This document shows positions 37,166 to 56,682 of a stretch of 64,000 bases of DNA, piece by piece. The notes beneath the pieces are model-generated. The model saw only the letters and a list, made by a program, of their open reading frames with translations. It was not told where the DNA came from and did not search any database. The DNA is from Camarhynchus parvulus (taxonomy: Eukaryota; Chordata; Aves; Passeriformes; Thraupidae), in contig NC_044573.1 in assembly GCF_901933205.1 (NCBI RefSeq), positions 86,696,546-86,760,545 of the forward strand, in the 5' to 3' direction. The translations under genes were made by a program, and so were the position numbers. The number at the start of each line of letters is the position of its first letter. Positions within the stretch are counted from its first letter, which is position 1.

Positions 37166-37369
37166 GACTCTATTAAGTGGCTTCCCAAGTCTCCTAAACT
37201 GCACAGTGGCCATAACTGGAGCTCCCAGGGCTCTCGCTGGGCCTCGTTGAAAGGGAGGGAAGGTTTTCCTGGTGGTAACCTGTACAAATTCAGCTCTGCC
37301 AATGGGAAATGGAGAGAGGGAAGGATCAGTCCCGAGCAAGAAGCAGAGGAACTCGAGGATCCTGATGAT
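37166..37369 (+). CDS. PDZ-unit exon 1: basic/aromatic linker with acidic end
   Basis: The acceptor is tttccctcag and the donor gtgagt, both strong. The length is 204 bp, 68 codons, phase 0 at both ends, without a stop. It encodes DSIKWLPKSPKLHSGHNWSS, then a Lys/Arg/Gly-rich stretch, and ends ISPEQEAEELEDPDD. No known domain is recognised. A linker of basic then acidic character is compatible with the disordered region between LRRs and PDZ1 in Scribble. Confidence 0.68.
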
Positions 37370-55300: not shown

Positions 55301-56682
55301 ATTTTCCAGAGCATTCTCCTAGAGAACCCGGCTGCTGATGGTTTGGAAGGGACACCTGTTGGAAGGGTTACAACTGGCTGGGTGGCCAGGCCCAGAGGAA
55401 GGTGATGAATGGTGCTACATTCAGCTGGTGGCTGGTCACTGATGGTGTTTCCCAGGACTCAGTACTGGGGCCAGTCCTCTTTAATATCTTTATAAATTAT
55501 TTGGATGAGGGGACTGAGTGCACCATCAGTAGGTTTGCTGGTGACACCAGGCTGGGTGGGAGTGTTGATTTGCTGGAGGGAAGGAAGGCTCTGCAGAGGG
55601 ATTTGGACAGGCTGGATTGATGGTCCAAGGCCAGTTGTGTGAGGTTCAGTGAGGCCTAGTGTCAGGTTCTGTTCTTCAGTCACAACAGCCCCATGCAGAG
55701 CTACAGGCTGGATGCAGAGTGGGAAAGGACCTCGGGGTGCTGATTGACAGCAGCTGAACATGAGCCAATGTGTGCCCAGGTGGCCAGGAAGGCTCATACA
55801 TCCTGGCCTGTATCAGCAATAGTGTGACCAGCAGGAGCAGGGCAGGGATTGTCCCCCTGTACTCAGCACTGCTGGGGCCACACCTCCAGTGCTGGGTCCA
55901 GTTCTGGGCCCCTCACCGTGAGAAAGACATTGAGGGGCTGGAGTGAGTCCAGGGAAGGGCAGTGGAGCTGGTGAAGAGTCTGGAGCACAAGTGCTGCGAG
56001 GAGCAGCTGAGGGAGCTGGGGGTGTTTAGCCTGGAGAGGAGGAGGCTCAGAGGAGACCTCATTGCTGTCTACAACTGTCTGAAAGGAGATTGTAAAATGG
56101 TGGGGTTTGGTCTCTTCTGCCATATAACAGGTGACGGGGTAAGAGGAAATGCTCTGAAGTTGTGCCAGGGTAGGTTTATCCTGGATATTAGAAAAAAAGT
56201 CTTTATAGAAAGGGTGTTCAAGCATCGGAACACATTGCCCAGGGAAGTGGCTGAGTCACCATCCCTGGAGGTATTTAAAAGACGTGTAGTGGTGGCACTT
56301 AGGGACATGGTTTAGTGGTGGACTTGGCAGTGCTGGGTTAGTAGTTGGACTTGATGATGTTAAATGTCTTTTCCAACCTAAACAATTCTATGATTCTCTA
56401 TGGTGTTACACCTCTCACATATTTTTTTCTCATCACTTGTTTCCCCAGTCCCTTTAAAATATTCCTGTTAAACACATCCCTGCTCTTGATCTGATTCTTT
56501 TCTCTGAAATCTTTCCCATCTTGCTGAAGATACCTCGGATAATCCTCACACGCCCATCCACTTCTGATGAAGATGCCGACCAGCTGCCCCCAGACCCTGA
56601 GGACTTTGAGCCCGAGGAGCCTGACAGCACAGAAGGCCATGCCTATTCAGACTGTCTGAGCAGTGCTTTCTATCCTCCCTAA
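37166..56682 (+). CDS. Scribble-like PDZ-containing exon cluster (novel LRRC1 tail or separate gene)
   Basis: Six exon-like segments share strand, phase 0 at both ends and an open joined frame: 37166-37369, 39529-39765, 40852-40941, 41617-41694, 43417-43512, 56530-56682. Joined they encode 255 residues. Order: a basic/aromatic linker (WLPKSPKLHSGHNW), an acidic end (EAEELEDPDD), a basic linker, a PDZ core (GSLGISIAGGKGS, then DE|GILIARL and AGVQAGDRVAE), a Pro/Ser linker, and an acidic tail ending AFYPP. The PDZ resembles Scribble PDZ1 (remembered GGLGISIAGGKGS, DEGIFISRV). The VNG, helix alphaB and last strand of the PDZ are not found. Position after LRRC1, Scribble's LRR paralogue, suggests an ancestral LAP tail. 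It could instead be a separate gene with its own promoter, or a decaying remnant, as two donors are weak. That all six exons form one transcript is inference. Confidence 0.6.
39529..39765 (+). CDS. PDZ-unit exon 2: disordered linker
   Basis: The acceptor is taaccctcag and the length 237 bp, 79 codons, phase 0 at both ends. It encodes EPISKFSGSLFDSNESVRDQ, a charged RATLQEKHKLAMKGK stretch, and a Pro/Ala/Gly-rich end with EELRTLDVPQAPLK. The 3' half is much more GC-rich than its surroundings. The donor AAG|gtctgg is weak; reading on would add 14 residues including a Cys run from a (CTG)6 tract before a stop. Confidence 0.66.
39774..39791 (+). repeat. (CTG)6 microsatellite
   Basis: Six perfect CTG units lie just after the donor of PDZ-unit exon 2. 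They would be read as a Cys run if that donor were skipped. Confidence 0.9.
39808..40391. repeat. GC-rich minisatellite, about 28 units of 20/21 bp
   Basis: Units read roughly ggggcactcctgtgtctgtg, with variants ccc for act and gag for gtg; some carry an extra ctccctg. Because of base composition the array lacks stop codons in most frames on both strands. It begins about 40 bp after the donor of PDZ-unit exon 2. Confidence 0.95.
40852..40941 (+). CDS. PDZ-unit exon 3: PDZ beta-A/B and carboxylate-binding loop
   Basis: The acceptor is ttcttttccag. The length is 90 bp, 30 codons, phase 0 at both ends. It encodes VTITVCSQMGSLGISIAGGK plus GSSSCKESDE. SLGI fills the place of the GLGF carboxylate-binding loop, and ISIAGGKGS is the Scribble PDZ1/PDZ2 signature. 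The donor GAG|gtgcat lacks the +5 G and is weak. Confidence 0.82.
41617..41694 (+). CDS. PDZ-unit exon 4: PDZ beta-C to beta-D/alphaA
   Basis: The acceptor is ttaccag and the donor gtaggt is good. The length is 78 bp, 26 codons, phase 0. It encodes GILIARLPKDAPPDLAGVQA and GDRVAE, matching the PDZ pattern GIFISRV...A..AGVRVGDKLLE. The next residues in a PDZ should be VNG, so an exon starting with those is expected but not seen. Confidence 0.85.
43417..43512 (+). CDS. PDZ-unit exon 5: Pro/Ser-rich linker (tentative)
   Basis: The acceptor follows a pyrimidine tract ending tttaaag; an alternative cag lies at 43430-43432. The donor is gtaagt, strong. The length is 96 bp, 32 codons, phase 0: ATFVSEPAALNAGPTEASPK then GSPSPTVNHVIT. 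Composition suits a linker between or after PDZ domains. It follows exon 4 directly only if the rest of the PDZ domain has been lost or missed. Confidence 0.55.
46606..46626. repeat. (ATAA)n microsatellite
   Basis: Four to five ATAA units in an AT-rich intronic stretch. Confidence 0.85.
47706..47771 (+). mobile_element. Possible tRNA-derived SINE remnant
   Basis: catagtgtagtggttag resembles the D-arm/A-box of tRNA-Val-type sequences and of MIR/CORE-SINE heads. About 45 bp later, tcctgctctccac recalls the MIR segment tcctggctctgccac. It cannot fold as an intact tRNA. This may be an old SINE relic or chance. Confidence 0.35.
48874..49065 (-). mobile_element. CR1-type LINE 3' end, short
   Basis: Reversed CR1 3' end (gaatcatagagtggtttggg), then the reversed ORF2 end (agcaacctgttccagtgttt). 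It is about 190 bp long, in the intron before the terminal PDZ-unit exon. Confidence 0.85.
52180..52218. repeat. T/G simple repeat (TTG and TTTTG units)
   Basis: Short runs of gtt and gtttt units, low-complexity sequence in the intron before the terminal PDZ-unit exon. Confidence 0.8.
54834..56399 (+). mobile_element. CR1-type LINE, degenerate, plus strand
   Basis: This is the longest CR1 copy here. It shows the reverse-transcriptase blocks VYLEFSKAFD (about 55268-55297), then VSQDSVLGPVLFNIFIN and the ORF2 C-terminal part LRELGVFSLERRRLRGDLIA, ending at a stop near 56315. The 3' end is the usual CR1 attctatgattct. The catalytic F-A-D-D box reads FAGD, an internal segment between the first blocks is missing, and frames change, so it cannot be active. 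It lies only 130 bp before the terminal PDZ-unit exon. Confidence 0.9.
56530..56682 (+). CDS. PDZ-unit terminal exon: acidic C-terminal tail
   Basis: The acceptor is ttgctgaag after a pyrimidine-rich stretch. The length is 153 bp in phase 0 to TAA at 56680-56682. It encodes IPRIILTRPSTSDEDADQLP, an acidic DPEDFEPEEPDSTEG segment, and ends DCLSSAFYPP. The Ser/Asp/Glu-rich part resembles a casein-kinase-type acidic tail by composition only. There is no C-terminal PDZ ligand. The stop codon overlaps a poly(A) hexamer. Confidence 0.65.
   Translation: MPRIILTRPSTSDEDADQLPPDPEDFEPEEPDSTEGHAYSDCLSSAFYPP

What the first reader, a model, noticed from the sequence alone, without database searches (positions are those of the whole stretch)
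37166..56682. Scribble-like PDZ exons downstream of the stop of the 'LAP and no PDZ' gene LRRC1
Seen directly: six same-strand segments with splice-like borders, all in phase 0 with lengths divisible by three (204, 237, 90, 78, 96, 153 bp) and no stop, two of which join into a PDZ core with GSLGISIAGGKGS and DE|GILIARL. Known: human LRRC1/Lano lacks PDZ domains while its paralogue Scribble carries four, with this same signature in the first ones. Inference: the ancestral LRRC1 had a Scribble-type C-terminus, and this lineage still carries its exons between LRRC1 and MLIP. I know of no description of this.
Basis: partly seen in the sequence, partly recalled or inferred. Interest (0 to 1): 0.88.

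Follow-up and report, generated by a model that had tools for sequence, protein, structure and literature searches.

The report
LRRC1's overlooked PDZ-bearing alternative tail
In a bird genome, likely a songbird's, the cell-polarity gene LRRC1, usually described as having no PDZ domain, is followed by six in-frame segments that encode two thirds of a Scribble-type PDZ domain and a strongly conserved tail; gene models from sharks to marsupials join them to LRRC1, so they likely give it a second, alternative ending.

Summary
The six segments are real: 858 bp, splice-bordered, all phase 0, one 285-aa frame ending in a stop. Of 194 homologous proteins retrieved, at least 56 carry LRRC1 repeats and this tail in one model, in birds, turtles, lizards, crocodile, marsupials, frogs, ray-finned fish and sharks; no placental mammal was listed. 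Thirty of the 56 start the tail right after LRRC1 residues ...NKNE. In the window that point is a GT donor inside LRRC1's last exon, and bird SCRIB has a donor at the matching place. Reading past it gives the known end ...VTTSV, a PDZ ligand. So LRRC1 likely chooses between ending as a PDZ ligand and ending in a tail that, in fish and sharks, holds a complete PDZ. That PDZ is closest to SCRIB PDZ1 and shares three exon borders with it. Bird, turtle and lizard models lack the third PDZ exon; crocodile, marsupial and frog models lack more, while flanking motifs (IPRIILT[RH]PSTSDED) stay frozen. Eight models join the tail to the next gene, MLIP. Not tested: transcripts, dN/dS. The PDZ tree is unresolved; both structure predictions failed. 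Database models exist; eight paper searches found no description.

The parts
25721..25857 (+). LRRC1 penultimate coding exon (...EENEM|gtatgt), ends in phase 0; upstream partner of the exon-skipping form of the long isoform
   Evidence: tblastn with recalled human LRRC1, borders; junction ...NEM|DSIKWL and the like in 17 of 56 fused models
27681..27839 (+). LRRC1 last exon of the known short form, ...GLDSNKNEVNNAIDRVTTSV and stop TAG
27801..27806 (+). Internal donor GAG|GTCAAT; using it gives ...GLDSNKNE| and phase 0 into 37166, removing the VTTSV end
   Evidence: same junction in 30 of 56 fused models; bird SCRIB has NSE|gtgggt at the matching place
37166..37369 (+). Tail exon e1: KWLPKSPKL...GRISPEQEAEELED, conserved block
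39529..39765 (+). Tail exon e2: EPISKFSGSLFD..., conserved start, variable end; weak donor AAG|gtctgg
40852..40941 (+). Tail exon e3: first part of PDZ (VTITVCSQMGSLGISIAGGKGSSSCKESDE); weak donor, absent from several bird models
41617..41694 (+). Tail exon e4: middle of PDZ (GILIARLPKDAPPDLAGVQAGDRVAE)
43417..43512 (+). Tail exon e5 (...TVNHVIT|gtaagt); in bird models of other species this is where the tail runs on into MLIP
56530..56682 (+). Tail exon e6 with stop TAA: IPRIILTRPSTSDED...SAFYPP; AATAAA at 56681 overlaps the stop and another lies at 57247

Best explanation
The six segments are likely the 3' exons of a long isoform of LRRC1, a second C-terminus that jawed vertebrates would have inherited from a Scribble-like ancestor of the gene. 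LRRC1 would choose at one splice donor inside its last exon (27800|27801). If the donor is ignored, the protein ends in VTTSV, the end by which Lano is known to bind PDZ proteins (recalled). If it is used, or if the last exon is skipped, that ligand is lost and a tail is added. In fish and sharks the tail holds a complete PDZ nearest to SCRIB PDZ1, so the switch would turn LRRC1 from a client of PDZ scaffolds into a scaffold itself. In birds, turtles and lizards the PDZ models lack the third exon (strand, helix alpha-2, last strand), and the tail likely acts through its frozen linear motifs instead. Shown: the frame, the borders, the fused database models, the borders shared with SCRIB, the absence of the third exon between e4 and e5. 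Inferred: splicing in this bird, the switch, the loss of binding.
For: Frame and borders. Homologues: 157 at E<=0.001. Fused LRRC1+tail models: at least 56 of the 194 proteins retrieved (my pattern missed two more, P0125 and P0168). Of the 56, 30 start the tail directly after NKNE, 8 keep part or all of the following VNNAxDRVTTSV stretch, 17 skip the last exon, and P0183 starts after NKN. Shared ancestry with SCRIB: the bird's own SCRIB has the matching donor (RRATPHPSELK...NSE|gtgggt, phase 0) and the same three PDZ1 borders: start |LTLTI, DDE|GIF, LLE|gt before VNG. PDZ nearest SCRIB PDZ1: PDB search (domain number recalled); 12 complete LRRC1-tail PDZs score 273 on average to bird SCRIB PDZ1 and on average at most 187 to the eight other PDZs tried, SCRIB PDZ2-4, ERBIN, LRRC7 and DLG4 PDZ1-3. 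Complete PDZ in one shark and two bony fish (65.5, 67.5, 62.5 bits, profile 8-80 of 81) but only profile 8-51 in canary, turtle and lizard (22.4, 24.2, 19.7 bits; cut-off 23.2). Third exon not found between e4 and e5. Constraint: 28 invariant columns in 23 aligned amniote and frog proteins, 12 in e1, 2 in e2, 14 in e6.
Against: No transcript was examined; the fused proteins are database predictions. The internal donor is weak here: -0.2 on a recalled donor matrix, against 1.3 to 8.3 for seven other LRRC1 donors and 3.5 for the penultimate one (the penultimate row used a wrong coordinate). The tail is often annotated as a separate short gene with ill-conserved first residues. Trees of 90-95 columns do not make the tail PDZs and SCRIB PDZ1 one clade (0% of 200 bootstrap trees), and an AU test does not reject tail plus SCRIB PDZ2 (p 0.246). 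The linkers e1-e2 show no similarity to the SCRIB linker. Both structure models are poor (mean pLDDT 45.3 and 47.1). A weak match to the third PDZ exon lies at 49809-49901, between e5 and e6, with two in-frame stops.
Confidence: 0.82

Rival explanations
1. A separate downstream gene, as many annotations have it ('protein scribble homolog', 'uncharacterized LOC'), split off from LRRC1 and with its own promoter.
For: The 120 proteins listed are 156-472 aa and, as far as the names show, only P0069 is named LRRC1; an ATG lies 18 bases before the e1 border in this window and canary and wheatear models start there.
Against: First residues differ from species to species and often look like read-through of a polypyrimidine tract, e1 has no conserved ATG, the 0.55-1.75 length rule kept fused models out, and at least 56 of 194 proteins are fused at consistent junctions.
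Confidence: 0.13
2. The exons serve mainly MLIP, as alternative 5' exons of that gene; joins to LRRC1 are read-through.
For: Eight of 194 models carry tail sequence and the MLIP domain PF15274: Ficedula, Sturnus, Pristis, Athene, Chaetura, Opisthocomus, Morphnus, Cetorhinus. This bird's MLIP exon has a phase-0 acceptor (tag|GTC TCT TCT), so e5 could join it in frame.
Against: At least 56 models join LRRC1; e6, which ends the tail before MLIP, is among the most conserved parts; the MLIP exon lies about 63 kb past e5.
Confidence: 0.12
3. Dead remnant of an ancestral Scribble-type end, open by chance.
For: The PDZ lacks its third exon and three donors are weak here (internal, e2, e3).
Against: No stop or frameshift in 858 bp; 93% identity to the canary model and 64% to a lizard model over the whole length; invariant e1 and e6 columns.
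Confidence: 0.03
4. A PDZ from an unrelated family inserted between LRRC1 and MLIP.
For: Some annotations name it disks large, PTPN13, InaD-like or erbin, and the tree is unresolved.
Against: Nearest PDZ is SCRIB PDZ1 in sequence and in three exon borders.
Confidence: 0.02

Closest known systems
LRRC1 / Lano, the known 524-aa form ending in VTTSV
   Same: Same gene, same LRR exons, same last-exon start (human sequence recalled)
   Different: The known form has no PDZ and ends as a PDZ ligand; the long form drops that end and adds the tail. [quoted passage not shown]
SCRIB (Scribble), PDZ1
   Same: Nearest PDZ; matching donor after the RRATPHP exon and three matching PDZ1 borders in the same bird
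   Different: SCRIB has four complete PDZs and another linker; the tail has one at most, incomplete in the amniotes examined, and an end motif for which the genome search gave no other match better than E 8.9
ERBIN and LRRC7 / Densin-180
   Same: LAP proteins with LRRs and a single C-terminal PDZ, the layout of fish and shark LRRC1-long
   Different: Their PDZ is much less alike (mean scores 140 and 129 against 273 for SCRIB PDZ1; sequences recalled)
MLIP
   Same: Shares tail sequence in eight models
   Different: Separate gene downstream; no LRR

Membership tests
LAP family (LRR and PDZ) | LAP-type leucine-rich repeats in the same gene | tested here: met
   LRRC1 exons from 6509 to 25857 in the window and LRRs in fused models
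LAP family (LRR and PDZ) | At least one complete PDZ, in this bird | tested here: not met
   Two of three PDZ exons; 21.7 bits against cut-off 23.2, profile 9-51 of 81; third exon not found between e4 and e5
LAP family (LRR and PDZ) | At least one complete PDZ, in fish and sharks | tested here: met
   P0156 shark 65.5 bits, P0164 bony fish 62.5 bits, LRRs and PDZ in one model, profile 8-80 of 81
SCRIB PDZ1 orthologue or paralogue | Closest sequence is SCRIB PDZ1 | tested here: met
SCRIB PDZ1 orthologue or paralogue | Same exon borders and phases | tested here: met
   Three PDZ1 borders and the upstream donor agree in the same genome
SCRIB PDZ1 orthologue or paralogue | Forms a clade with SCRIB PDZ1 in a tree | tested here: inconclusive
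   Unresolved; 0% of 200 bootstrap trees, AU p 0.246 for tail plus SCRIB PDZ2
LRRC1 isoform | Spliced to LRRC1 in RNA | not testable with these tools
   No RNA data; database models only

The most novel reading that the evidence does not exclude
One exon cassette serves two neighbouring genes. LRRC1 uses it as an alternative tail, trading its PDZ ligand for a PDZ scaffold, and MLIP uses the same exons as its front end. The cassette has lost its PDZ piece by piece in land vertebrates while its flanking linear motifs stayed frozen, and it was lost altogether on the way to placental mammals.
Probability: 0.35. Interest if true: 0.86.

Novelty: new variant of a known kind. Interest (0 to 1): 0.72.

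Why it matters
LRRC1 is known as the LAP protein without a PDZ, and its role is read from mammals. If the long form is made, LRRC1 outside placental mammals is a different protein: in fish and sharks a true LAP scaffold, in birds and reptiles one with a conserved, unexplained tail. It suggests how 'LAP and no PDZ' could arise: by reading through an ancestral splice donor into a short end, not by losing the PDZ exons first. It offers a natural series of a folded domain eroding while the linear motifs around it are kept, and it makes a client-or-scaffold splice choice testable in fish, Anolis and birds.

Tried and rejected
Structure: two AlphaFold2 jobs (Polyodon tail P0039 with 28 rows; canary P0001 with 23 rows) gave mean pLDDT 45.3 and 47.1. 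They say nothing on the fold, so no fold search was run.

Tree: 25 rows with DLG4 and 19 rows without. Both are unresolved with long branches, so I rest on scores and exon borders. P0161 was dropped from the first tree because my pattern missed its PDZ, and it was left out of the second.

Third PDZ exon: four queries against three intervals in six frames. In one of 12 tests the score passed the best of 20 shuffled queries (46 against 41, Amia, 43514-56529). It is the place that one search gave at E 0.59, 49809-49901, with two in-frame stops and between e5 and e6, the wrong interval. I take it as chance; a displaced dead remnant is not excluded.

Linker homology with SCRIB: none. Origin of the e6 motif: besides itself one hit in the genome, at E 8.9.

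No placental genome could be searched, so this is absence from lists, not proof of loss. Lampreys, hagfish and invertebrates were not seen in the lists either.

Paper searches (listings seen, passages read only in PMC10333293 and PMC12731447) found no description of a PDZ-bearing LRRC1. The library misses most subscription journals, including the 2002 LAP phylogeny, seen only as a reference.

A pattern slip: one search's recount of exon-skipping junctions used a wrong pattern and reports 2; the 17 are those that one search shows with NEM| followed by the tail and without the TPHPGELK exon.

Full report
What is there. The window lies on contig 3 of a 1.05-Gb genome (G000:C3:86696546-86760545). 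Its best matches are songbirds, so it is likely a songbird; the species is not known to me. LRRC1 exons from 6509 to 27839 were found with recalled human LRRC1. Joined they are 858 bp, 285 aa, with one stop at the end.

What it belongs to. A search of 5.8 billion proteins with the joined 285 aa gave 157 hits at E<=0.001, 120 listed. They are stand-alone models called 'protein scribble homolog', 'uncharacterized', or by other names, from birds, turtles, lizards, a snake, crocodilians, marsupials, frogs, ray-finned fish, rays, sharks and a coelacanth, and some nameless metagenome pieces. That search admits only proteins of 0.55 to 1.75 times the query's length. A second search used the window's LRRC1 exons plus the tail, scoring the tail alone, and so admitted longer proteins. 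It returned 120 proteins, many named 'leucine-rich repeat-containing protein 1'. In all 194 proteins were retrieved; 56 hold both an LRRC1 repeat motif and the tail (motif plus local alignment score of 45 or more). The count is a floor, since the motif missed P0125 and P0168. The 56 include sharks (P0156, P0161, P0163), ray-finned fish (such as P0160, P0164, P0180), frogs (P0167, P0190), turtles, lizards, a crocodile (P0148), marsupials (P0155, P0158) and many birds.

The junction. Of the 56, 30 start the tail directly after LRRC1 residues ...NKNE, 8 keep part or all of the following VNNAxDRVTTSV stretch, 17 skip LRRC1's last exon (...NEM|DSIKWL and the like), and P0183 starts after NKN. In the window NKNE| is followed by GTCAAT, a donor inside the last exon at 27800|27801. 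Used, it joins e1 in phase 0; ignored, the protein ends NNAIDRVTTSV and stop. The same genome's SCRIB has a donor at the matching point of the matching exon: RRATPHPSELKVMKK...NSE|gtgggt, phase 0. So the known LRRC1 end likely arose by reading through an ancestral LAP donor.

The PDZ. e3 and e4 match Scribble PDZ1 chains best among solved structures (domain number recalled), and so does the complete PDZ of the Polyodon tail, below one row of DLG4 whose score sums three PDZs. Twelve complete tail PDZs score 273 on average to bird SCRIB PDZ1, 187 to PDZ2, and less to SCRIB PDZ3-4, ERBIN, LRRC7 and DLG4 PDZ1-3 (ERBIN, LRRC7 and DLG4 recalled). Bird SCRIB PDZ1 starts at the same border and has its introns at DDE|GIF and after LLE, all phase 0, as e3 and e4 do; SCRIB PDZ2 has no border at its start. 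The trees are unresolved, which I count against the sequence argument.

Erosion. One shark and two bony fish scanned carry a complete PDZ (62-68 bits, profile 8-80 of 81). Canary, turtle and lizard reach 22.4, 24.2 and 19.7 bits over positions 8-51 (only the turtle passes the cut-off of 23.2), the window 21.7. The missing exon (VNG...HHEAV...) was not found between e4 and e5; one weak, stop-bearing match lies between e5 and e6. The coelacanth model stops at the same place. Several bird models also drop e3, or e3 and e4, and the three crocodilian models drop both; models cannot tell skipped from lost. Marsupial models hold only a worn stretch where e4 would be (EGTVAAQLSRKNSVEMTG...), without a Pfam PDZ in the one scanned (P0041). 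The two frog models aligned go from e2-like sequence to e6. No placental was listed. Over the same series 28 columns are invariant in 23 aligned proteins: 12 in e1 (among them GR.SPE.EAE), 2 in e2, 14 in e6 (IPRIILT.PSTSDED).

MLIP. Eight of the 194 carry tail sequence and the MLIP domain PF15274 (P0045, P0047, P0119, P0137, P0149, P0150, P0154, P0169), six in birds and two in cartilaginous fish; P0137 (Athene) joins LRRC1, tail and MLIP. In this genome the MLIP exon near C3:86803476 has a phase-0 acceptor.

How it likely works. The choice at 27800 would set what the end of LRRC1 does. The VTTSV end is a PDZ ligand (recalled; PMC12731447 says that LANO interacts with MAGUK proteins, passages read). 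The long end lacks it. In fish and sharks it brings a PDZ1-like domain, so the protein would hold ligands as Scribble does. In amniotes the groove's second wall is missing, and the frozen motifs likely do the work. The internal donor is weak in this bird, so the short form is likely the default. e2 to e5 are all phase 0, so skipping them keeps the frame.

What is new. Models exist in databases. One recent paper calls LANO the only LAP member lacking a PDZ (PMC12731447), and none of eight searches showed a description of the tail.

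Noticed in passing
39780-40390: A GC-rich tandem repeat (units like GGGGCACTCCCTGTGTCTGT) directly after e2's donor; read by eye.
   Followed up: no
55150-56400: What looks like a CR1-type retrotransposon piece (recalled resemblance) lies in the intron just before e6; two fused models (P0141, P0143) end in such sequence instead of e6.
   Followed up: no
37148-37165: An in-frame ATG 18 bases before e1 (MSSFPQ|DSIKWL) is used as start by canary and wheatear models; elsewhere the start differs, so it may be an annotation makeshift.
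   Followed up: partly
36885-37028: An open stretch MLKVGLVP...VELKVLLK|gtaaaa matches the first residues of owl, crane, stork and swift models (P0003, P0005, P0023, P0149): a possible alternative 5' exon of the tail.
   Followed up: partly
49809-49901: A weak, stop-bearing resemblance to the third PDZ exon of the Amia tail (score 46; E 0.59 in tblastn), in the intron between e5 and e6.
   Followed up: partly
fused fish models P0162, P0165, P0166, P0180, P0181: These keep VNNAxDRVTTSV and then run on into the tail, so another donor just after the VTTSV stretch would be used in some fish.
   Followed up: no
PDB 8boj_A: A solved PDZ chain is named 'Leucine-rich repeat-containing protein 1'; its organism was not checked and it may be an automatic name from another animal.
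   Followed up: no
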